Below, piece after piece: positions 51,427 to 61,223 of a stretch of DNA of 64,000 nucleotides. Under the pieces are notes generated by a model that was not told the origin of the DNA, searched no databases, and saw nothing but the letters and a program-made list of their open reading frames with translations. Each line of letters begins with the position of its first letter. Position 1 is the first letter of the stretch. The translations under genes were made by a program, and so were the position numbers. Source of the stretch: an uncultured Lachnospiraceae bacterium (GTDB lineage Bacteria; Bacillota; Clostridia; Lachnospirales; Lachnospiraceae); contig CAMWFQ010000016.1 in assembly GCA_947173495.1 (NCBI GenBank), forward strand, positions 1 through 64,000, given 5' to 3'.

Positions 51427-52428
51427 GTGATCAGTGTAAGAAAACTCACGAAAGAATTCAAAATACCGGTCAAGCCGCCGGGGATGAAAGGGGCCATACG
51501 ACACCTGATCCGGGGCGAATACAAGGTGAAGGTGGCAGTGGAGAGCGTAGATTTTTCCATTGAGCAGGGGGAGGCGGTGGCATATATCGGACCCAACGGA
51601 GCCGGGAAATCCACCACAATCAAGATGCTGACGGGAATCCTAAAGCCCACCTCGGGAGAGATACTCGTAAACGGAATCGACCCCCAGAGACACCGGATAC
51701 AGAACGCAAAAAACATTGGAGTGGTGTTCGGACAGCGCACCCAGCTCTGGTGGGATATACCGGTGGAAGAATCCTTCGCACTGCTGAAAAATATTTACGA
51801 AGTACCGGATGCTGTTTACAACGAGAACTTAAAGCTTTTCAACGAAATTTTTGGATTATCTGAATTTATAGGGCGTTCTGCCCGAAAACTTTCCCTGGGA
51901 CAAAGAATGAGAGCCGACCTGGCGGCGGCACTGTTACACAATCCGTCGACTGTTTTTCTGGATGAACCTACCATCGGACTGGATATCGGGACGAAGGAGG
52001 CGATGAGAGAACTGATCCAGAGAATCAATCGGGAAAAAGGCGTGACCATTATTCTTACAAGTCATGACCTGAAAGATGTGGAGGATATATGCCGCAGAAT
52101 TATTGTGATTGATGGCGGAAGGATTATCTGTGATAAGGAGATCAGTCAGCTGACGAAGGAGTACGCCATGGACCGCGGCCTGCAGATCACCCTTCTTGAT
52201 ATGCAGAAGGAGCTGCCCGCTCGTCTGCTGGGGCAGGAGGGGATCTCCTATGCGGCCATGGAGGATGCTCATACCCTGGAAATTCATTTCAAGCCCGAGA
52301 TGTACACAGCCTTTGAAATTGTGGAGGAGGTAAATAAATATGCCAGGATCCAGGACTTCAGGCTCAGAGAGCCCAGCATTGAGCGCATGATCGAGAAGAT
52401 CTACCGTTCCGGAGAACAGAGCGCTTAA
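51427..52428 (+). CDS. ABC-2 type exporter, ATPase subunit
   Basis: 333 residues. Walker A GPNGAGKSTTIKMLTGIL, a long insertion typical of the daunorubicin-resistance-like group before VVFGQRTQLWWDIP, signature KLSLGQRMRADLAAALL (Gly-Gly replaced by Leu-Gly), Walker B TVFLDEPTIGLDI, and H-loop LTSHDLKDV. A C-terminal ~80-residue domain follows. Start GTG at 51427 with AGGAGGGGTATGAA upstream. Followed by two membrane subunits. Confidence 0.93.
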   Translation: MISVRKLTKEFKIPVKPPGMKGAIRHLIRGEYKVKVAVESVDFSIEQGEAVAYIGPNGAGKSTTIKMLTGILKPTSGEILVNGIDPQRHRIQNAKNIGVVFGQRTQLWWDIPVEESFALLKNIYEVPDAVYNENLKLFNEIFGLSEFIGRSARKLSLGQRMRADLAAALLHNPSTVFLDEPTIGLDIGTKEAMRELIQRINREKGVTIILTSHDLKDVEDICRRIIVIDGGRIICDKEISQLTKEYAMDRGLQITLLDMQKELPARLLGQEGISYAAMEDAHTLEIHFKPEMYTAFEIVEEVNKYARIQDFRLREPSIERMIEKIYRSGEQSA

Positions 52429-52485
52429 AAAGCTTCTGAACAGAAAAAGGGAATATACGGCCAATAAGAAAGGAGGCGGAATATT

Positions 52486-53289
52486 TTGAGGAGATTTATC
52501 AGGCGCTATATAGGTTTTACCAGATGCACCATGGAAGAGCGGATCGCCTACAGAAAGGGATTTCTGGTGAGTGCGGTGCTGAACATGGTGGGGATTTTAG
52601 TATCCGTATTTCTGTGGAGGGTTCTGTTTGCGCAGGAGAGCGTGATTCAGGGGTATGACTGGAACCAGATGATTTTGTATGTGCTGATCGTTGCTCTGCT
52701 GAACGCCACGCTGGGATTTGATACCGAGAGGAAGCTCTCGAAGGGAATTTTGGATGGTTCTATTGCAAGTGATCTGACAAAGCCCATTGATTTTCAGAGC
52801 ATGAGCTTTTTTCAGGCGCTGGGACATTCGCTGGTGGAAGGCGGAACAGCATTGATTTTGGTGGTGTTGCTTGCCGTAACGCTTACGGATCTGTCGCCTT
52901 ATCTGAATCCGGTGAGCATGGCGCTGTTTGCGGTGAGCCTTATGCTGGCATTTATGTTAAAATTCTGTCTGGCCTATTTCGGCGGGCTGATGTGCTTTTT
53001 TACCTCCAACGGATTCGGGGTGGTGTATCTGCGCCAGGTGATTACGGATGTGTTTTCCGGAGCGATGCTTCCTCTTGCTTTTTTCCCGGCATGGTTTCAG
53101 CGCCTGGCCGGCGTGCTGCCTTTCCAGGCATCGGTTTACCTTCCTACCCAGATTTTTCTGGGCAGAATAGAGGGGAGGGGCGCGGTGAGGATCCTGGCGC
53201 TGCAGGCGCTGTGGGTGGTGGTTATGTGGACGCTTTCAGGACTCTTTTTCCGTTTTGCAGTAAAAAAGATCACAATTCAGGGAGGATGA
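52486..53289 (+). CDS. ABC-2 type transporter membrane subunit 1 (PF06182-like)
   Basis: 267 residues, about six membrane helices (for example VSAVLNMVGILVSVFLWRVL and MSMALFAVSLMLAFML-like stretches). TTG start at 52486 with AAAGGAGGCGGAATAT upstream. A conserved GSIASDLTKPIDFQSM segment fits the ABC-2 family 'type 6' permeases that work with DrrA-like ATPases. Four bases separate it from the second permease. Substrate unknown. Confidence 0.88.
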   Translation: MRRFIRRYIGFTRCTMEERIAYRKGFLVSAVLNMVGILVSVFLWRVLFAQESVIQGYDWNQMILYVLIVALLNATLGFDTERKLSKGILDGSIASDLTKPIDFQSMSFFQALGHSLVEGGTALILVVLLAVTLTDLSPYLNPVSMALFAVSLMLAFMLKFCLAYFGGLMCFFTSNGFGVVYLRQVITDVFSGAMLPLAFFPAWFQRLAGVLPFQASVYLPTQIFLGRIEGRGAVRILALQALWVVVMWTLSGLFFRFAVKKITIQGG

Positions 53290-53293
53290 CGCT

Positions 53294-54076
53294 ATGCGGA
53301 CGATTCGGATATTTTTTCAGATGACGGGAGCTAACCTGCGGGGGCTTATGTCCTTTAAGACGGATTTTCTGGTGTCCTTTTTTGCAGGACTCCTGTCCCA
53401 GACCATCGGTCTTTTGTTTTTGAGTGTTTTGTTTCAGAATATACCCGCAATAGCGGGTTGGACAGTGTATGAGGTGGCCATTCTGTACGGCTATATGTTT
53501 TTTGGAGAAGGAATACTGACCCTCTTTTTTCAGGGGACGAACGGACTCTGGCACCAGGTGAGGCTGGGAGATATAGACAGGTACATGACAAGACCCATCT
53601 CTCTGGAACTGCAGATCTGCGGACGGCAGACCAATCTTGCAGGGGCAGGCACAGCGCTTACAGGACTGGCGGTGATGCTCTACTCCTTCGGGAAGCTGCA
53701 GATTTCCTGGAATCTGTGGAAGGCGATACTGTTTGTCGTAAGTCTTATACTGGGCGCAGGTATACGTGTCGATATTAATTTTGCTTCCAGCGCGCTGGCC
53801 ATGCTTCTGGAAGGGGCCGGAGGGATCAAGGGAGCTATTGAGCGGGTGCAGGAGATGGGAAAATATCCGCTGGATATTTATCCGAAGGTATTCCGGATCA
53901 TTCTGCTGACCCTGATTCCCTATGCGGCGATCAGCTATGTGCCGGCGGTGGTGCTTCTGGGAAGGGCGCCGTATCCGTACTTTCTGCTTCTGCCTGCGGC
54001 GACGCTGCTGATCATTGGGCTTAGAAAGTGGATTTTTGCGAAGGCCATGGAAAGATATGAGGGGGCGGGGAATTAG
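53294..54076 (+). CDS. ABC-2 type transporter membrane subunit 2 (PF06182-like)
   Basis: 260 residues, about six membrane helices (SFFAGLLSQTIGLLFLSVLF near the N-terminus, LLLPAATLLIIGL near the end). The GDIDRYMTRPISLELQICGR segment corresponds to the T-K/R-P loop of its partner, so the two permeases form a heterodimer with the upstream ATPase. ATG 53294 with GGAGGATGACGCT. A promoter for the next gene starts right after its stop. Confidence 0.88.
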   Translation: MRTIRIFFQMTGANLRGLMSFKTDFLVSFFAGLLSQTIGLLFLSVLFQNIPAIAGWTVYEVAILYGYMFFGEGILTLFFQGTNGLWHQVRLGDIDRYMTRPISLELQICGRQTNLAGAGTALTGLAVMLYSFGKLQISWNLWKAILFVVSLILGAGIRVDINFASSALAMLLEGAGGIKGAIERVQEMGKYPLDIYPKVFRIILLTLIPYAAISYVPAVVLLGRAPYPYFLLLPAATLLIIGLRKWIFAKAMERYEGAGN

Positions 54077-54095: not shown

Positions 54096-54124
54096 TTGAA
54101 AATCCGGGAAGAGAATGATATACT
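54096..54124 (+). promoter_or_regulatory. Promoter of the M60 protease gene
   Basis: TTGAAA (54096-54101), 17 bp spacer, TATACT (54119-54124), giving a ~65 nt AT-rich leader. It separates the protease gene from the ABC operon. Confidence 0.75.
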
Positions 54125-54196: not shown

Positions 54197-57100
54197 ATGA
54201 AACGAATGATGGCCGGCCTGTTGGCTCTTGGATTGATCATGACATGTATTTTCCCGGTGCAGGCGGCGGAAACGCTGCCCGGTGCGGACAGGCAGAACGC
54301 TCGGAACGAAATGCAGACAGATCCGGACTCGGAAGATCAGCGAAAGCAGGAGACGCAGACTGGGAATGGAAAGGAAAGAACAGTTACGGACAGTGATGCT
54401 GCAACCCCTTCACCGGTCGGGACTTTTTCTCCGGTCCCCGAAAAATCGGCTTCTCCCTCTCCGGTTCCAACCGCGATCTCTCCCTCTCCTGCAGCTTCTG
54501 CGGGGGTAAATAAGACGCCTGCTTCCGGGGCGTCTGCAGAGACGGATAAGACGCCCGGCTCCGGAGCGGCTGAGGGTTCTCCTCAGATAGAAGGGACGCC
54601 GGTGCCATCAGGCATGCCCGGGGCGGCAGGGGCAGAAGGGGAGAATCTTCCACAGTCATCCCCCACAGCATCTGTTGCGCCGGAAAATGCTTCTTCGGTG
54701 AATACAGAGGATGACATTCAGTATGCCTCATCGGATCCGGCAGGAAGGATTGAAGTCCTGTTAAGGAATGCGATTCCGGTGGAGAAGGTAACGGCTACTG
54801 TGAGGGTGGAAATGGCCGGAGAGGGCAAGAGCGGTTCCGGGACTGTGATTCTGGAGAAGAACGCCCAGATCCACCCGGTTCATTTTGATCAGCTTTTGCC
54901 CGGGTCCTATCATTTGACAGTAGAAGCACCCGGTTTCCTGCCTTATAAACAGGATATCGAGGTGGACGGGAATGTTGTGACCGCAGAAATTCACACCGGC
55001 TTCGTGGATATGGAGGGCTTTTCCTGCGATCAGGACAAGGCCCGTCCGGGGGTTTTGCTGATCGGAGATGTAAACGGAGATGGGATTATTGATGGGAAGG
55101 ATAAGGACGCCATAACAGAAGCGATAAGCCGCGGCGAAAATGGTGTGCTGGCAGGAAATCCGGATGATGCCACCGATCTGAACCGGGATGGCAGGACGGA
55201 TCTTGTGGATCTGCAGTACTATGTCAACAGCCGGGCCAGTCAGTATGATCATGTGGATACCAGCTCCTCTCTGGCAGAGAGCATTGCTCCGGACGCCATC
55301 GCAGTGAATATAGATCAGGATATAACAGTGACAGGAGGATCTCTGGAGGATCTTCTTTTATGGAACCATAATACCGTAAAGCTGGAAAAGAGCCAGCCTA
55401 TCACAGAGGAGGATCCCGCTGCGGTATCCTTTAATCTTCAGAGCCGGGAACAGGCGGAGAATGGGGAATATATTCCGGTTGAGCAGATCGAGATCTCCAT
55501 GGGTGCGGCGGCTATCGAGAGCGGCTTTCTGGAGATCGAGACAGACGAGAGTTCTCAGCCTCAGAAGATTGAGATTGTTGATGGAAAGATTACATCGCGG
55601 TCAGGCGCGAGGGCGGCAGGCTCCGAGGGCGGGAACAACCAGCTGACAGTTTATCTGGGAGATCAGATCGCGGTCAAAAAAGTGACGCTGGTGATCACCA
55701 GAGCCAAGGATGGCGGGAGCCTGGCGGAGATCAGCAGGGTGGAATTCCTGAATGATATGGAAAACCGGATCCCGGAACCTGAGATGAATATTCCGGGAAA
55801 TCTGGAAGTGACACCTGCTGACAAATCTTTTTATCTGGAGTGGGATCAGCAGTGGAATATTACCGGTTATGAGGTGGAGATCAGCCATGGCGGGGAAACA
55901 GAGATCGTACGTGCGGCATCTAACAGTCTCCAGGTGAAATCCTTTAGAGGAGACAAGCTCAAAAACAAGGAAGTTTATGAAGTGCGGGTACGGTCGGTTA
56001 ACGGAAACTGGACCAGCGGCTTCAGCGGGAAAAAGGAGGCGGTTCCTGAAGTATCCAAAAGGCCTGATGCCCCGGATAATGTGAGAGCTGTGGGCGGATA
56101 TCAGAAAGTCCGTATGAGCTGGAAGAAGATGAAGGATACAGATACTTATAATGTCTATTATAAGGAAGCGGGGGAAAGTGCGTTCCGGCAGGTTACAGGT
56201 ATCACGCAAAACCAGTACGAGATTACAGGACTGAAGGATCAGACCAGATACGAGGTATATGTGACGGGTGTAAATGAGATAGGGGAAGGAAATCCTTCTA
56301 TTCATTCGGAAGCCAGGACGATTACCTTAAAGCCTGCACAGATGCCGGAGTATAAGCTGATCAATGAATCCAACGGTAAGGGAAAGGTAAGCGCGCATAT
56401 TACAGGGGCCTGGCATTTTAGAGGGGAAATGACGGCCAGTCCGCTGGATACGGAACCCAAAAGCGCTCTGGGAACGGTAGACAAGGATTTTGCTTCCAGC
56501 TACCAGATCCTGGACTGGGACGACGGCGCCGTCTATGTGTCGCCGGATAAGGGTCTGTTATTTGAACTGGATGATTACTATAAGATGAGTTATATCGCCT
56601 TTGCGGAGACGGAGGATATTGCTTCATACGGCGCTGTGTCTGTTTACTATTATGACCAGGAGCATCCGGAGGGAACTTATGCAGAGAATCCGACAGTAGT
56701 GCAGAGAAGCGATGCAAACGGAAGAAAATATTACCTGATCAAGCTTTCCAAAGCCATTACAGCCAATAAAATCCGGCTTGGTTTTTCACGCGGCTATAAT
56801 TTGCGAAATATGGTGATTGCGGAAGTAAACTTTTATCATTATGACAGCCTGGAGGACGATATTCTGGGGCTGTATGCAGACGACCTGCATACGTCCCTGA
56901 AAGAAGGTGTGACGGAAGAGACCATCAATGAACTTCAGCAGAGGCTGGATACCCGGGATACCAAAAGCGGGGAGTACCATCCGGAGAAGGATGTGCTGCA
57001 GAGAGAGCTGGATAATGCAAAAGGGCTGCTGGCGTCAGGCTTCCAGGATATTATACAGATCAATCCGAAGATCCGCGCGGGAAAAGATTCTCATCTGGGA

Positions 57101-59782
57101 TTCGGAGGCCTGAATTCGTGGCAGCCGCTGGGGATTACGGCTTACGAAGGGGAGCAGATTGTCGTATATGTTGGTCATAATCAATTGAAGACCGGCTCCA
57201 ACTCTGCCCTGAAGCTGATTGCGACTCAGTATCATGCGGAGTCCGGCGCCTTTGCGTCAGAGGTGGCGTCCCTGAAGGTGGGACGTAATGAGATCACGAT
57301 TCCGGCGATTCAGAGCCTGGCCTTTGAGGGGGGAGGCGCCCTTTATGTTCAGTATACCGGAAACAATGACAACGACAGATATGCAGTGAGGGTAAACGGA
57401 GGAGTCAGAGAACCGGTGCTGAATCTGTATGGAGTTTCCGATGCGCAGGAAAGGACGCAGCTTGTCACTTCTTATGTAAAAGAGCTGGAAGAGCATGTGG
57501 CGTCTCAGAAGAGCGTTCATGAGCAGGTGCATGAAGCGGCCGGAGAGAACAGCAGTGTAAACCGCGCCTATGATAAGCAGAATTGTATTCTGGGTGCAAC
57601 AGACATTGTACTGGATCAGATGATGCTCTCTGTATCAGGGGAGCAAATCCTCGCAGGGCTGGGAAGCGGATCTTCTGAGGAGCGTGCAGAAAGACTGGAT
57701 CAGTCGCTGTATGCCATGGACGAAATGCTGGCGCTGTTTTATCAGCACAAAGGTCTGACTCGAGAGGAGTCGGCGCCGGCCACAGACCGTATGCCGGTTC
57801 AGCATTTGAATATCCGTTATATGCGGATGTTTGCGGGAGCCTTTATGTATGCTGCCGGAAATCATATCGGAATCGAGTGGGGCTCTGTTCCGGGGCTGGC
57901 GTCTTCTTCCCCAGTGATCTCGGATGAAAGGGGCAGATATCAGAGCGGAAGATATTTCGGCTGGGGAATTGCCCATGAGATCGGACATAATATCAACCAG
58001 GGAGCTTATGCCATTGCGGAGGTGACCAATAATTATTTTGCCCTTCTTGCGGGCGTAAAAGACAGCAATGATTCTGTCCGTTTCAAATATGAGAACGTGT
58101 ATAAGAAGGTGACGTCGGGGACCGTAGGCAGTGCGTCCAACGTCTTTACACAGCTGGCCATGTACTGGCAGCTTCACCTTGCTTATGACAGGGACTATAA
58201 TTATAAAACCTATGACAGTCACAGTGAACAGCTTGCAAATCTGTTCTATGCGAGGGTGGACTCTTACAGCAGAAATACGGCGCTTGCACCGGGAGGACTC
58301 CGGCTGGGAGGCGGAAGCGATCAGAATATCATGAGACTGGCCTGCGCCGCTGCCGAAAAGGATCTGACAGAGTTTTTCATGCGCTGGGGCATGGTCCCGG
58401 ATGCAGATACCATACGATATGCAGGGCAGTTCCCGAAGGAGGAAAGAGCGCTGTATTATCTGACAGACGATGCCAGAGTATATGAAATGGAGTATGGCGT
58501 ATCCGGTTCTGTGCGGGAGAGCGATGTGATCAGTGCTGCCAGCAGTGTGGCGTTAAGTGAAAAGGTCTCTAATGAAGTGGTGCTTTCTATTCAGAATACA
58601 CTGAGCAACCAGGAAGTAATTCTTGGTTATGAGATCGCCCGGTATCATTACGAAGATGGGAAACCTGTGCGTCAGGTAATTGGATTTACACCGGAAAGCT
58701 CATATGTAGACCATATTTATACAGTGAATAACCGGGTGATCTCTTATGAAGTTACGGCGGTGGATCAATTTGGATACAGATCCAATCCGGTCCGCATCGG
58801 AGATGTAAGGATCAGTCATGACGGCAGTTATGATAAATCCCTCTGGACTGTGAAAACAAATATGACTTCAGAAGCAGACAGTGCCGGTACAGGCCAGGAA
58901 GAGGATCCCTGTGACCCTGGAACGGAATCTGCCATTTACAGCATTGTGGATCATGACTATGGAAATACTTATGAGGGGCAGAATGCAAACGGCGAGGCGG
59001 CAATTCTGATTCATCTGAACCAGGTACTGGGTGTGTGCGGGCTGAAATATACGCTGAAATCGGGAACACCTGTGGGAGATTATGAGATACAGGTGAGTGT
59101 GGATGGCAAAGAATGGACCAGTGTCAGGACAGGAAGATTTGACGATAAAAAAGGAAGCCAGACTGTTTATTTTGAAAATGCTGCAGGGGATCCCTGGATC
59201 TGTACGTATGACGCTGCGTATGTAAAATTAAAAGCGGTTGGTCAAAGCAGCATGCGCATATCAGAGATCGACCTGCTGGGACCTTCGGGCGACAGCATAT
59301 CCTTCGGGGTGAAAGAGAACAGCACGGAAGGCGCTGTGGGAATCCTGAAAGAGGATTATGTATATGAGCATAAAGAAGGAGGAGAGCGGAAGGTAATCCC
59401 GGCAGGTTCTCTGATCTTTACTGGCAGCTATAAGGGAAATCCTGCTTACAATGTGGTAGTACTCTACGATGAGGAAGGCGCTGTTGTGGGAGGTGTGGAC
59501 GAAGAAGGCATACTTAAGGCGGAGCAGATTATTCTGGCAAAAACACCGGAAAACGGGTTGCTGGGAGAAGTGAGCGATGGAATCTGGATCTACTGGATCA
59601 CGCCTGCAGAGGGGCAGAAGCCGGACATCGGCAAAAAGGTGAGAGCGCAGCTCTACCGTGTGGATAATGCATTGACCAATGAAGGACAAAGGCTTGTAAG
59701 CGACGCGCTGCCTCTTCCGATACCGGATGAGCTTCAGGAAATCACGCTTAAAAGCGGTGTGGAAACACAGGACGGCCAGTAG
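54197..59782 (+). CDS. Secreted M60/enhancin-type metalloprotease with dockerin-like and FN3 domains
   Basis: 1861 residues. Signal peptide 1-24 (LLALGLIMTCIFPVQAAE); a Ser/Pro/Thr-rich linker to ~170; a beta domain; a dockerin-like pair of calcium loops (GDVNGDGIIDGKDKD at ~290 and DLNRDGRTDLVD at ~327); two FN3 domains (~530-715); an F5/8C-like beta domain; and an M60 peptidase with HEIGH (H1260, E1261, H1264) and a third ligand candidate E1275. Then FN3- and galactose-binding-like C-terminal domains. M60 proteases cleave mucin-type glycoproteins. There is no sortase motif or C-terminal anchor, so surface attachment would have to be through another protein. Start ATG 54197 with AAGGAGAAGCTCT. 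Confidence 0.9.
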   Translation: MKRMMAGLLALGLIMTCIFPVQAAETLPGADRQNARNEMQTDPDSEDQRKQETQTGNGKERTVTDSDAATPSPVGTFSPVPEKSASPSPVPTAISPSPAASAGVNKTPASGASAETDKTPGSGAAEGSPQIEGTPVPSGMPGAAGAEGENLPQSSPTASVAPENASSVNTEDDIQYASSDPAGRIEVLLRNAIPVEKVTATVRVEMAGEGKSGSGTVILEKNAQIHPVHFDQLLPGSYHLTVEAPGFLPYKQDIEVDGNVVTAEIHTGFVDMEGFSCDQDKARPGVLLIGDVNGDGIIDGKDKDAITEAISRGENGVLAGNPDDATDLNRDGRTDLVDLQYYVNSRASQYDHVDTSSSLAESIAPDAIAVNIDQDITVTGGSLEDLLLWNHNTVKLEKSQPITEEDPAAVSFNLQSREQAENGEYIPVEQIEISMGAAAIESGFLEIETDESSQPQKIEIVDGKITSRSGARAAGSEGGNNQLTVYLGDQIAVKKVTLVITRAKDGGSLAEISRVEFLNDMENRIPEPEMNIPGNLEVTPADKSFYLEWDQQWNITGYEVEISHGGETEIVRAASNSLQVKSFRGDKLKNKEVYEVRVRSVNGNWTSGFSGKKEAVPEVSKRPDAPDNVRAVGGYQKVRMSWKKMKDTDTYNVYYKEAGESAFRQVTGITQNQYEITGLKDQTRYEVYVTGVNEIGEGNPSIHSEARTITLKPAQMPEYKLINESNGKGKVSAHITGAWHFRGEMTASPLDTEPKSALGTVDKDFASSYQILDWDDGAVYVSPDKGLLFELDDYYKMSYIAFAETEDIASYGAVSVYYYDQEHPEGTYAENPTVVQRSDANGRKYYLIKLSKAITANKIRLGFSRGYNLRNMVIAEVNFYHYDSLEDDILGLYADDLHTSLKEGVTEETINELQQRLDTRDTKSGEYHPEKDVLQRELDNAKGLLASGFQDIIQINPKIRAGKDSHLGFGGLNSWQPLGITAYEGEQIVVYVGHNQLKTGSNSALKLIATQYHAESGAFASEVASLKVGRNEITIPAIQSLAFEGGGALYVQYTGNNDNDRYAVRVNGGVREPVLNLYGVSDAQERTQLVTSYVKELEEHVASQKSVHEQVHEAAGENSSVNRAYDKQNCILGATDIVLDQMMLSVSGEQILAGLGSGSSEERAERLDQSLYAMDEMLALFYQHKGLTREESAPATDRMPVQHLNIRYMRMFAGAFMYAAGNHIGIEWGSVPGLASSSPVISDERGRYQSGRYFGWGIAHEIGHNINQGAYAIAEVTNNYFALLAGVKDSNDSVRFKYENVYKKVTSGTVGSASNVFTQLAMYWQLHLAYDRDYNYKTYDSHSEQLANLFYARVDSYSRNTALAPGGLRLGGGSDQNIMRLACAAAEKDLTEFFMRWGMVPDADTIRYAGQFPKEERALYYLTDDARVYEMEYGVSGSVRESDVISAASSVALSEKVSNEVVLSIQNTLSNQEVILGYEIARYHYEDGKPVRQVIGFTPESSYVDHIYTVNNRVISYEVTAVDQFGYRSNPVRIGDVRISHDGSYDKSLWTVKTNMTSEADSAGTGQEEDPCDPGTESAIYSIVDHDYGNTYEGQNANGEAAILIHLNQVLGVCGLKYTLKSGTPVGDYEIQVSVDGKEWTSVRTGRFDDKKGSQTVYFENAAGDPWICTYDAAYVKLKAVGQSSMRISEIDLLGPSGDSISFGVKENSTEGAVGILKEDYVYEHKEGGERKVIPAGSLIFTGSYKGNPAYNVVVLYDEEGAVVGGVDEEGILKAEQIILAKTPENGLLGEVSDGIWIYWITPAEGQKPDIGKKVRAQLYRVDNALTNEGQRLVSDALPLPIPDELQEITLKSGVETQDGQ

Positions 59783-59834
59783 AAAAGGGAAGAACTTGAC
59801 TTAAGCGCGCCAGGCAAGGAGTAAAGAGTGAAAT

Positions 59835-61223
59835 ATGCAGGAAAGAGGTAAAAAGGTGAAAGGGATTTGGACGAAATTAGTTTTGGTATTGGCTGCAGGG
59901 TGGATGTTCTTTCCGCTGCATGCCGCAGCGCAGGAGCAGGATGCGGTAACCTTGAGGCAGGAGGAATCCAGAGTATCAGTATTGCTTGAGGTGAGTAATG
60001 CGGAAAACGAGAGGATCACATCGGTGTCTCTTTCCCTGAAACTGGATTCGGCGAGCAAAGACAAAGTGACCGTAGACTTTGACTTTGCGCCGGGCCTTGC
60101 CGATGCGGCTCAGGGTTTTCATTATAACAGCGGGACAGGCAGGATGGACATATATGCGGCAAGTGCGGAAAATCTGTTTTCCGGCAACGGCGAAAACCTG
60201 CATCTGGGATATGTGCGGGTGATGCCGAAGGACGCGTCGCAGGTTCTGGATATTGAAATCAGCTATTGTGAAAATTCCTTCCAGACGGCGAATGCATCCT
60301 ATGGAGATAAGACACCGATGGTGGAGCAGGAAGTGGATTCTGTCTGCATGAAAATAGGAGCGGGGGTGGTTTACACTGCATCTACGCAGACATTGGAAGA
60401 CTATTTGGCACAGGCATTAAACAGCAGCCGGGAATCTTACTCGGAGGAAGCCTGGGCAGATCTGCAGAGCGCGATTCAGGAAGCGCAGGAGCTTCTGCAG
60501 AAGGGAGGACTTTCCCAGAGTGAGATCGACGATATGGCGGAGAGACTGTACCTGATGATGGCCAACCGGGAGGTGACGCCTCCGGCAGGAGAGAATAACG
60601 CTGCCCCGTCGGGCGGCAATTCCGGAACAGGAAATACTTCCTCCGGAAACGGAGCAGGTAACTCCCAAAAGGGCGATGGAAATCAGAAGGAAGGGTTGTA
60701 TGATGAAAGCACGCGCTTCGTAAATGATCCCGCAAATGCACAGAATATTTCCTCCTCTGTAATCGGAAACAAAGATCTTCATTCGGATCTGGTGGATATG
60801 AGCCAGGGAGCGGCAGCAGTAATCGGCGGCAGGCCAAAGACCGGCGGCAGCACTGACGGAGAAACGAAAACCGCCGGAGAGATCAAGGCAGCTGGCCGGG
60901 TATCCGTGGTGGATCCGGCGGATGGACCGGCCGGTATTCTGGTGGCGGGCAGAGAAGGCTGGAAAATGTCCGGCGGAGAGGGAATTGCGGCGCTGACCCC
61001 TGAGGAGGGGAACGGTTCCGAAGAGATTCTTTTGGATCAGAAAAACGGCGGCGCAGTGGATGAAAATAAAAAGGACGAAAGAAACCTTCCCCTGATCATC
61101 GGCGTCGCAGCGGCAGTGGTCATCGCCGTGGCGGCAATGGTCGCTGTTGCGCTGGCAGCAAAAAGGAAAAGGGCCGGCACGGGTAAAAAGAAAAAGAGGC
61201 GTCCGAAAAAGAAGAAAAAGTAG
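59835..61223 (+). CDS. Membrane-anchored protein with cohesin-like and FIVAR-like domains
   Basis: 462 residues. Signal peptide (LVLVLAAGWMFFPLHAAA); a beta domain ~37-165 with cohesin-like pattern (SVLLEVSNAENERITSVSLS, later LHLGYVRVMPKDASQVLDIE); a helical FIVAR-like repeat ~175-245 (LEDYLAQALNSSRESYSEEA); a Gly/Asn/Ser-rich linker; a membrane helix (PLIIGVAAAVVIAVAAMVA); and a Lys/Arg-rich cytoplasmic tail. Start ATG 59835 (AAGGAG 13 bp upstream) or GTG 59856, both plausible. It follows the dockerin-bearing protease by 52 bp, so it may be its surface anchor; the cohesin assignment is by pattern only. Confidence 0.72.
   Translation: MQERGKKVKGIWTKLVLVLAAGWMFFPLHAAAQEQDAVTLRQEESRVSVLLEVSNAENERITSVSLSLKLDSASKDKVTVDFDFAPGLADAAQGFHYNSGTGRMDIYAASAENLFSGNGENLHLGYVRVMPKDASQVLDIEISYCENSFQTANASYGDKTPMVEQEVDSVCMKIGAGVVYTASTQTLEDYLAQALNSSRESYSEEAWADLQSAIQEAQELLQKGGLSQSEIDDMAERLYLMMANREVTPPAGENNAAPSGGNSGTGNTSSGNGAGNSQKGDGNQKEGLYDESTRFVNDPANAQNISSSVIGNKDLHSDLVDMSQGAAAVIGGRPKTGGSTDGETKTAGEIKAAGRVSVVDPADGPAGILVAGREGWKMSGGEGIAALTPEEGNGSEEILLDQKNGGAVDENKKDERNLPLIIGVAAAVVIAVAAMVAVALAAKRKRAGTGKKKKRRPKKKKK

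What the first reader, a model, noticed from the sequence alone, without database searches (positions are those of the whole stretch)
54197..61223. Possible two-gene cohesin-dockerin system anchoring a mucin-type protease
The M60 protease has a signal peptide, a pair of dockerin-like calcium loops and no anchor of its own. The next gene encodes a cohesin-like domain, a FIVAR-like domain, a membrane helix and a basic tail. Together they could form a minimal surface complex in which the protease docks on a membrane-bound scaffold. In known cellulosomes the scaffold carries many cohesins and the dockerin is usually terminal; an internal dockerin-like module with a single-cohesin, membrane-anchored partner would be a new, simpler layout.
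Basis: partly seen in the sequence, partly recalled or inferred. Interest (0 to 1): 0.75.

Follow-up and report, generated by a model that had tools for sequence, protein, structure and literature searches.

The report
Mucin protease with its own socket
A gut bacterium carries a two-gene set in which a secreted mucin-type protease bears a calcium-binding plug and the next gene appears to encode a matching socket fixed to the cell surface; related gut bacteria keep the two genes together while swapping the surface anchor.

Summary
Window 54197-59782 encodes an M60 metalloprotease with an internal dockerin carrying both calcium loops, the only dockerin found in this genome. Window 59835-61223 encodes a signal peptide, a beta-domain, a weak FIVAR, a membrane helix and a K/R tail. 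Related loci show a conserved module. In the genus both genes occur in the same 16 genomes. In a sample of 397 family genomes, all 38 M60 hits have a partner gene downstream (35, one inferred across contigs) or fused (3); all 37 with a complete N-terminus carry the dockerin. The partner's beta-domain is constant; its surface attachment varies: membrane helix, choline-binding repeats or, outside the family, SLH. The beta-domain is probably a divergent cohesin: no Pfam or PDB cohesin hit, but a collinear profile match far above shuffles. Most likely: a dedicated 1:1 dockerin/cohesin pair displaying the protease on the cell. Single-cohesin anchors and internal dockerins are known from cellulosomes, so this is a new variant of a known kind.

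The parts
54096..54124 (+). Promoter-like site TTGAAA-17-TATACT ahead of the protease gene
   Evidence: Consensus scan, (10 of 12 matches); consensus only
54197..59782 (+). M60 protease gene (1861 aa) with internal dockerin
54197..54268 (+). Signal peptide (aa 1-24, approximate end)
   Evidence: Sequence by eye
54734..55012 (+). X-module-like beta domain (aa 180-272) directly before the dockerin
   Evidence: PEGA / CarboxypepD_reg matches; aligned in 22 of 22 loci
55052..55234 (+). Dockerin (aa 286-346)
   Evidence: PF00404; PDB dockerins
55067..55102 (+). Calcium loop 1 (aa 291-302, DVNGDGIIDGKD)
   Evidence: Conservation
55175..55210 (+). Calcium loop 2 (aa 327-338, DLNRDGRTDLVD)
   Evidence: Conservation
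55799..56332 (+). Two fn3 domains (aa 535-712)
   Evidence: Pfam fn3, two stretches; the limits of the first are by eye
57494..58801 (+). M60 catalytic region (aa 1100-1535, approximate)
   Evidence: Pfam M60; PDB ZmpA/B/C relatives
57974..57988 (+). Zinc-binding motif HEIGH (aa 1260-1264)
   Evidence: HE(I/V)GH in all 16 aligned
58940..59182 (+). F5/8 type C-like domain (aa 1582-1662)
   Evidence: Pfam PF00754 E=1.5e-5, below curated cut-off
59835..61223 (+). Partner gene: membrane-anchored, cohesin-like socket protein (462 aa)
59934..60368 (+). Cohesin-like beta domain (aa 34-178)
   Evidence: Constant part of the family; profile similarity to cohesins
60390..60545 (+). FIVAR-like spacer (aa 186-237)
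   Evidence: PF07554 24.4 bits, below cut-off 29.2; 2 of 16 genus partners
61092..61148 (+). Membrane helix (aa 420-438)
   Evidence: Hydropathy 2.98
61149..61220 (+). K/R-rich tail (aa 439-462), presumably cytoplasmic
   Evidence: 15 of 24 residues K/R

Best explanation
The two genes form a minimal plug-and-socket display system. The large protease is secreted without an anchor and carries a calcium-folded dockerin next to an X-module-like domain. The downstream gene makes a single divergent cohesin-like domain on a stalk, held in the membrane by one helix and a basic tail. The dockerin, probably together with the X-module, binds this one socket, so that the protease sits on the cell surface and cuts O-glycosylated (mucin-type) proteins next to the cell. 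Shown here: the domains, the dockerin's conserved calcium ligands, tight conservation of the gene pair, three gene fusions, and swapping of attachment types with a constant socket domain. Inferred: the cohesin fold, the binding itself, its calcium dependence, the mucin substrate and the surface location.
For: (1) The same 16 genus genomes carry both genes (16 of 36 for the partner; 16 of 37 for M60; G691 was searched only and lacked M60). (2) Adjacent, same strand, in 15 of 15 other genus genomes and 22 of 22 named contigs (largely the same organisms). Flanking genes are mostly not conserved. (3) In a sample of 397 family genomes, 38 of 38 M60 hits have a partner, 35 split (one, G101, inferred across two contigs) and 3 fused. 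The iterated profile recognises the beta-domain in 36 (two of them its own genus), marginally in 1 (L148) and not in 1 (L150); it hit nothing else among 885 ORFs. (4) All 37 with a complete N-terminus carry the dockerin; Pfam Dockerin_1 in 37 of 40 segments scanned. (5) Attachments differ while the socket stays: helix with or without basic tail, choline-binding repeats (8.2e-32), SLH x3 (3.8e-33). (6) In this genome the M60 dockerin is the only one and there is no Pfam cohesin. (7) X and Doc have the highest partial distance correlation with the socket of 9 segments (0.447, 0.341; others 0.207-0.284). (8) Cohesin similarity: score 26.7 over 103 collinear columns against at most 12.5 in 100 column shuffles. 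(9) The same layout with mostly Pfam-recognised Doc and cohesin exists in the family for another secreted protein.
Against: 0 of 48 socket domains hit Pfam Cohesin, 0 of 16 full partners, and no PDB cohesin appears at E up to 10. The profile match is modest: hhalign probability 34% against 33 diverse cohesins, 5% against the pooled set, 0.8% against 22 cohesins from five cohesin-rich genomes, 2-29% against an extended set. 24 of 42 M60-bearing genomes have a Pfam cohesin elsewhere at E<=0.001, so in those the dockerin could have another partner; in this genome and G028 none was found. Two of the three fused proteins still keep the internal dockerin although the chains are joined (the third is cut by its contig end), so docking cannot be only a tether. 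L049 has lost calcium loop 2; L144 and L208 appear to have lost loop 1. The co-evolution signal is weak: Doc beats all 7 controls in only 56% of subsamples, and within the genus it does not exceed the best control (0.33 each). Some partners (fn3, Big_2 types) have no recognised anchor. There are no structure, binding or localisation data.
Confidence: 0.75

Rival explanations
1. The partner's beta-domain is a glycan- or mucin-binding adhesin, not a cohesin. The two proteins act on the same substrate but do not bind each other; the dockerin is only a calcium-stabilised structural hinge or binds some other cohesin.
For: No Pfam or PDB cohesin hit. Internal dockerin between two beta domains. Fused forms keep the dockerin. 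24 of 42 M60 genomes have a Pfam cohesin elsewhere.
Against: Profile similarity to cohesins exceeds that to ten other protease profiles (best 16.8 against 26.7). X and Doc track the socket best of nine segments. This genome has no Pfam cohesin. The dockerin's calcium ligands are nearly its only invariant residues.
Confidence: 0.12
2. The two domains bind each other but mainly to shape the protease (closing its N-terminal part onto a domain at its C-terminal end), with anchoring secondary. This would explain why fused proteins keep the dockerin.
For: Three fusions place the socket domain at the protease C-terminus; the two with a readable N-terminus keep the dockerin there, and all three end in a further dockerin-like module. 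Those three genomes have 27, 18 and 37 Pfam dockerins.
Against: In split pairs the socket is on a separate chain with its own, lineage-specific surface attachment in many cases.
Confidence: 0.08
3. The partner is a dedicated secretion or folding helper for the very large protease, and the helix keeps it at the membrane during export.
For: Strict adjacency and order; nearly all genus partners have a helix with a basic tail.
Against: Some relatives attach by choline-binding repeats or SLH, that is to the cell wall or S-layer (the role of these modules is established knowledge), away from the export site; fusions keep the domain permanently.
Confidence: 0.03
4. It is part of an ordinary cellulosome-type complex with many enzymes.
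For: Dockerin-rich genomes exist among relatives (G279 37, G157 27, G314 27).
Against: This genome has one dockerin and no Pfam cohesin.
Confidence: 0.02

Closest known systems
Ruminococcus flavefaciens ScaE anchor with X-dockerin proteins (cellulosome)
   Same: One cohesin on a surface-anchored protein receives an X-dockerin; a cysteine peptidase docking on ScaE is mentioned (PMC12484212, passage); internal dockerins occur in 32 proteins (PMC2930009, passages).
   Different: ScaE is sortase-anchored (LPXTG) and holds a whole multi-enzyme complex; here one enzyme has a neighbour-gene socket held by a membrane helix, in a genome with a single detected dockerin, and the socket is not recognised by Pfam Cohesin.
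Clostridium perfringens single cohesin (X82) / dockerin enzyme complexes
   Same: Non-cellulosomal use of single cohesins with host-glycan enzymes (PMC12997984, section 21).
   Different: There the cohesins sit on glycoside hydrolases, linking enzyme to enzyme; here it sits on a non-catalytic anchor protein.
Limousia mucinolysome
   Same: Dockerin-bearing mucin enzymes, including peptidases, in gut bacteria (PMC12997984; abstract, passages and section 21).
   Different: Multi-cohesin scaffoldins and many dockerin enzymes, against one protease and one socket.
M60 O-glycopeptidases ZmpA/ZmpB/ZmpC
   Same: Closest solved relatives of the catalytic region (the name ZmpB for 5kdj is recalled).
   Different: Dockerin-bearing M60 were rare in an early survey: a table of 415 M60 proteins lists 2 for the dockerin domain (PMC3267712, passage).
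Canonical two-gene Doc / Coh-helix pair noticed in five of the Lachnospiraceae genomes
   Same: Secreted protein ending in a dockerin, next gene starting with one cohesin and carrying a helix.
   Different: C-terminal dockerin, SH3/cadherin-like secreted protein, acidic tail; Pfam Cohesin in 3 of the 4 partners scanned.

Membership tests
Dockerin type I (PF00404) | Significant profile match | tested here: met
   27.1 bits vs cut-off 22.9 in genome search and 25.2 in the excised segment, but 20.6 bits in the full-length scan; 37 of 40 segments at E<=0.01
Dockerin type I (PF00404) | Two calcium loops with D-x-N/D-x-D...D ligands | tested here: met
   Both loops in the window protein; in the genus contigs 21 of 22 by eye, L049 lost loop 2; ligand columns invariant or nearly so
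Dockerin type I (PF00404) | Calcium-dependent binding to a cohesin | not testable with these tools
   Needs protein
Cohesin (PF00963) | Profile match over curated cut-off | tested here: not met
   0 of 48 domains, 0 of 16 full partners; none in own genome at E<=10
Cohesin (PF00963) | Remote profile-profile similarity over the whole domain | tested here: inconclusive
   Collinear 103 columns, P 4e-4, above 100 shuffles and ten other protease profiles; weak against 22 cohesins of five cohesin-rich genomes
Cohesin (PF00963) | Nine-strand cohesin fold | not testable with these tools
   Structure prediction switched off
Peptidase M60 (PF13402) | Profile match and HExxH | tested here: met
   E=5.5e-13, cut-off passed; HEIGH aa 1260
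Peptidase M60 (PF13402) | O-glycopeptidase activity on mucin-type proteins | not testable with these tools
   Inferred from relatedness to solved M60 glycopeptidases
Cellulosome | Scaffoldin with several cohesins and several dockerin enzymes | tested here: not met
   One dockerin, no Pfam cohesin in the genome
X-dockerin dyad | Ig/CnaB-like X-module directly N-terminal to the dockerin, jointly contacting the cohesin | tested here: inconclusive
   PEGA/CarboxypepD_reg-like domain is there; PDB X-dockerin chains match only in the dockerin part; joint contact untested; X-module definition recalled
FIVAR (PF07554) | Profile match over cut-off | tested here: not met
   24.4 vs 29.2 bits

The most novel reading that the evidence does not exclude
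Gut Lachnospiraceae, and some other Clostridia, use a general one-plug/one-socket display strategy: a secreted enzyme with a solo dockerin plus a neighbour gene for a solo, divergent cohesin on an exchangeable surface anchor. The M60 pair defines an unrecognised cohesin type that answers how these mucin proteases are held on the cell. Multi-enzyme systems can absorb the pair by fusing the socket to the enzyme and adding a second dockerin, as seen in dockerin-rich relatives.
Probability: 0.5. Interest if true: 0.75.

Novelty: new variant of a known kind. Interest (0 to 1): 0.62.

Why it matters
An early M60 survey marked the Clostridium and Bacillus members of one figure with a '?-anchor' because no surface-anchoring feature could be seen (PMC3267712, figure-legend passage). 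If this reading is right, the anchor of the Lachnospiraceae M60 proteases examined here is encoded in the next gene and is hard to see because its cohesin-like domain is too divergent for Pfam. It would show cohesin/dockerin pairing as a minimal 1:1 surface-display device for mucin-type proteases in gut commensals, outside cellulosomes. It also offers naturally paired plugs and sockets with at least three kinds of surface attachment.

Tried and rejected
Ordinary cellulosome: rejected for this genome (one dockerin, no Pfam cohesin). FIVAR as a core part: rejected, 2 of 16 genus partners. Window neighbours as part of the system: not conserved in most of 22 loci; in four of them (L051, L054, L056, L066) the contig ends within about 1.7 kb upstream, so absence there says little. 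Rows dropped before counts: G145/L111, a 565-aa Hsp70-like chaperone (by eye); G036, which covers only the FIVAR region (query aa 187-266) and whose region L047 gave no hit; L098 (cut N-terminus) from the dockerin count. Pattern search of genome contigs with the single protein gave no relative; with the alignment it worked. PDB searches with the partner or its profiles found no cohesin. A class-wide search of 245 genomes with the 48-row socket profile gave, besides our own, only five weak hits, E 0.001-0.007, not followed up. In one search the circular-shift controls are not valid negatives (small shifts keep the alignment); they reached 25.8 and are not used. The first hhalign run was in global mode, where one fn3 profile scored 15.4 against 14.0 for cohesins; it was replaced by local mode. 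The null for the enlarged cohesin set crashed. Raw mirror-tree correlations are uninformative because the genes are linked, and label permutations were exceeded by control segments too. Literature: ten searches; several lists were capped (15 of 2,845, 15 of 77, 10 of 32, 10 of 3,946, 12 of 113). None of the listed papers was seen to describe this pair, judged from listings and the passages read; the library holds open-licence PMC papers only. PMC2914790 (passages) says Butyrivibrio proteoclasticus lacks dockerins and cohesins; not used further.
Full report
WHAT IS THERE. The window is on contig 16 of a 4.58-Mb genome in 52 contigs. Gene 1 (54197-59782, 1861 aa) has a signal peptide, an X-module-like beta domain, a dockerin with two calcium loops, two fn3 domains, the M60 catalytic region with HEIGH at aa 1260, a F5/8C-like domain (below its curated cut-off) and a conserved C-terminal region. 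Gene 2 (59835-61223, 462 aa) has a signal peptide, a beta-domain, a weak FIVAR, a membrane helix and a K/R tail. A promoter-like site lies ahead of gene 1 and no plus-strand terminator-like site falls between the genes (consensus scan only).

THE DOCKERIN IS REAL. Pfam Dockerin_1 scores 20.6 bits in the full-length scan (below the 22.9 cut-off), 27.1 in the genome search and 25.2 in the excised segment. As a profile of 23 homologues it hits solved dockerins, best 2ccl_B at 6.3e-5. It matches in 21 of 23 close relatives at E<=1 and 37 of 40 diverse ones at E<=0.01. In that set of 40, with 27% mean identity, the only invariant columns are Gly290, Asp302, Asp327, Asp331 and Asp338 in window numbering; the four Asp are calcium-loop positions and the Gly just precedes loop 1. 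Exceptions: L049 lost loop 2; L144 and L208 appear to have lost loop 1.

THE TWO GENES TRAVEL TOGETHER. The partner is found in 16 of 36 same-genus genomes and the M60 core in 16 of 37. They are the same 16; one genome, G691, was in the second search only and lacked M60. In the 15 other genus genomes the protease lies directly upstream on the same strand in all 15, and likewise in 22 of 22 named contigs; these two sets overlap heavily. Gaps in the 22 run from -35 to 178 nt. The window's other neighbours are mostly not conserved: of six genes tested at E<=1e-20, two ABC membrane genes, the metallo-hydrolase and the regulator/methyltransferase are in 0 of 22, GH42 in 2, and the ABC ATPase matches once at 29%. 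In four of the 22 the contig ends within about 1.7 kb upstream.

FAMILY-WIDE PATTERN. M60 core hits occur in 37 of 397 sampled family genomes, 38 hits. I looked at the neighbourhoods of all 38 (window). Each has a partner gene directly downstream on the same strand (35) or fused at the protease C-terminus (3: L098, L100, L101). In one genome, G101, the pair is inferred from two contigs that each end inside the protease gene. An iterated profile of the socket domain recognises 36 of 38 (34 in other genera, plus the two genus members it was built from), with one marginal (L148, E=0.005) and one missed (L150, same layout by eye); it hit nothing else in 885 ORFs of the other-genus neighbourhoods. 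The internal dockerin is present in 37 of 37 with a complete N-terminus (L098 is cut by its contig end). One of two pairs in genome G339 has HVIGH instead of HEIGH (L097); 39 of 40 proteases checked have HExxH. Outside the family, 6 more genomes of the class have such M60 proteins (7 of 245 including our own). All 6 have the dockerin, and 5 have a downstream gene of the same plan, the sixth being cut by the contig end. The socket profile scores there are weak (E 0.003 to 3): two (L207, L210) score no better than unrelated neighbours. Over 37 split pairs outside the genus, 34 gaps are 27 nt or less.

THE SOCKET IS CONSTANT, THE ANCHOR IS SWAPPED. In the genus 22 of 23 partners have a helix followed by a K/R-rich tail by the hydropathy scan; L063 has a longer ORF and showed none in its last 170 residues. 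Elsewhere the C-terminal part is a helix with a short tail, sometimes with FIVAR (L104, 6e-6), choline-binding repeats (L107 8.2e-32; L153 1.8e-13), or SLH domains (L205 3.8e-33, L208 3.9e-23); some have fn3 or Big_2 matches with no recognised anchor (L103, L147, L106, L150), and L110 gave no match. I gave Pfam 10 of the 38 split partners outside the genus; the other assignments are by eye or hydropathy. A fixed binding domain on a changing surface-attachment module is what an anchor protein should look like (inference).

IS THE SOCKET A COHESIN? Against: none of 48 domains and none of 16 full partners hits Pfam Cohesin at E up to 10, and no cohesin appears in PDB searches. For: hhalign of the 57-row socket profile against 33 diverse true cohesins gives score 26.7 over 103 collinear columns, P 4.3e-4, probability 34%. 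One hundred column shuffles reach at most 12.5 and the reversed profile 12.6. Ten other profiles from the protease (its other domains, catalytic region and dockerin) reach at most 16.8. Against the pooled set of true cohesins the score is 19.8, and against 22 cohesins from five cohesin-rich genomes only 15.7, no better than those controls. With 16 further cohesins the probabilities are 2-29%. Cohesin models also score the 36 non-genus members above reversed sequences (p=0.002), protease chunks (1e-10) and other ORF chunks (6e-21). fn3 models do not exceed the first two; an X-module model exceeds protease chunks (1e-6) but not reversed sequences. Members are related, so these p-values are optimistic. 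I judge a divergent cohesin fold likely, not proven.

DO THEY BIND? No direct test was possible. Indirect: after removing the M60 background over 45 non-redundant pairs, the socket's distances correlate best with X (0.447) and Doc (0.341) out of nine protease segments (rest 0.207-0.284). In 300 subsamples X beats all seven controls in 86% and Doc in 56%; given the mean of the other segments Doc (0.297) barely exceeds one fn3 (0.282); within the genus Doc (0.33) only equals the best control, outside it leads them (0.41 against at most 0.26). This is suggestive only. This genome's sole detected dockerin is the protease's and it has no Pfam cohesin. But 24 of 42 M60-bearing genomes examined have a Pfam cohesin somewhere, so elsewhere another partner is possible.

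THE FUSED FORMS. L100 and L101 keep the internal dockerin, carry the socket domain after the protease and end in a second dockerin-like module (Pfam for L101 at aa 2030-2083; L100's is by eye). L098 also ends in such a module, by eye; its N-terminus is cut. Their genomes have 37 (G279), 27 (G157) and 18 (G217) Pfam dockerins at E<=0.001; of the 39 other genomes examined 26 have 0 or 1, and two (G314 27, G216 19) are dockerin-rich but split. These counts are lower bounds: seven genomes show none although their M60 dockerin is there, and in G342, G357 and G424 the one hit listed is not the M60's. So in dockerin-rich species the pair can be built into a larger complex through a new plug (inference). 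That the old dockerin is kept after fusion argues that Doc/socket contact does more than tether, or that it is made between molecules.

A SECOND, CANONICAL EXAMPLE. While counting cohesins I found neighbouring genes in five M60 genomes (G398, G074, G342, G357, G341) where a secreted protein ends in a dockerin and the next gene starts with a cohesin and carries a helix further on, by eye. Pfam finds the dockerin in the four secreted proteins given to it and Cohesin in 3 of their 4 partners, one of these below its cut-off (the fifth locus, L218, was not scanned there). So the plan 'secreted protein with plug, next gene socket plus anchor' exists with standard modules in this family.

COMPARISON. 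Single-cohesin anchors (ScaE), internal dockerins and a peptidase on ScaE via X-dockerin are known (passages). A multi-enzyme mucinolysome was published in 2026 (PMC12997984; abstract, passages and one section seen). C. perfringens uses single cohesins on enzymes (same paper). What differs here is a dedicated one-enzyme, one-socket pair, exchangeable surface attachment, and a socket family unseen by Pfam. Among the papers listed by ten searches none was seen to describe this pair (several lists capped).

VERDICT. Real, conserved and probably a working dockerin/cohesin-type display pair (0.75). New variant of a known kind.

Noticed in passing
L217:3175-7282, L218:2994-7074, L219:316-4205, L220:3586-7655, L221:3294-8015: A second two-gene Doc/Coh pair in five Lachnospiraceae genomes: a secreted, mostly SH3/cadherin-like protein (glucosaminidase-like by recollection, no catalytic Pfam hit at 0.001) with a C-terminal dockerin, followed by a gene with one N-terminal cohesin, a membrane helix and an acidic tail.
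   Followed up: partly
L097:5946-12239: Genome G339 has two M60/socket pairs; in one the zinc motif reads HVIGH instead of HEIGH, so that copy may be catalytically dead while keeping dockerin and partner.
   Followed up: partly
L098, L100, L101: M60 proteins with the socket domain fused at the C-terminus plus a further C-terminal dockerin-like module, in genomes with 18, 37 and 27 Pfam dockerins.
   Followed up: partly
window 60690-61070: Residues invariant in the 16 aligned genus partners between the socket domain and the helix (around GLYDE, VSVV.P..GP.S and EEI.LD..NGG) have no assigned role.
   Followed up: no
L222:3964-5483: Neighbouring genes for a cohesin protein with a C-terminal helix (266 aa) and a cohesin-plus-dockerin protein (258 aa) in genome G437.
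   Followed up: no
window 51427-54076: ABC transporter trio (an ATPase and two ABC2_membrane_6 proteins) directly upstream of the protease; its two membrane genes were found in none of 22 related loci, so it does not look like part of the module.
   Followed up: yes
L063:10001-11818: Partner ORF is 605 aa, longer than the other genus members listed (394-500 aa), and no helix was found in its last 170 residues.
   Followed up: no
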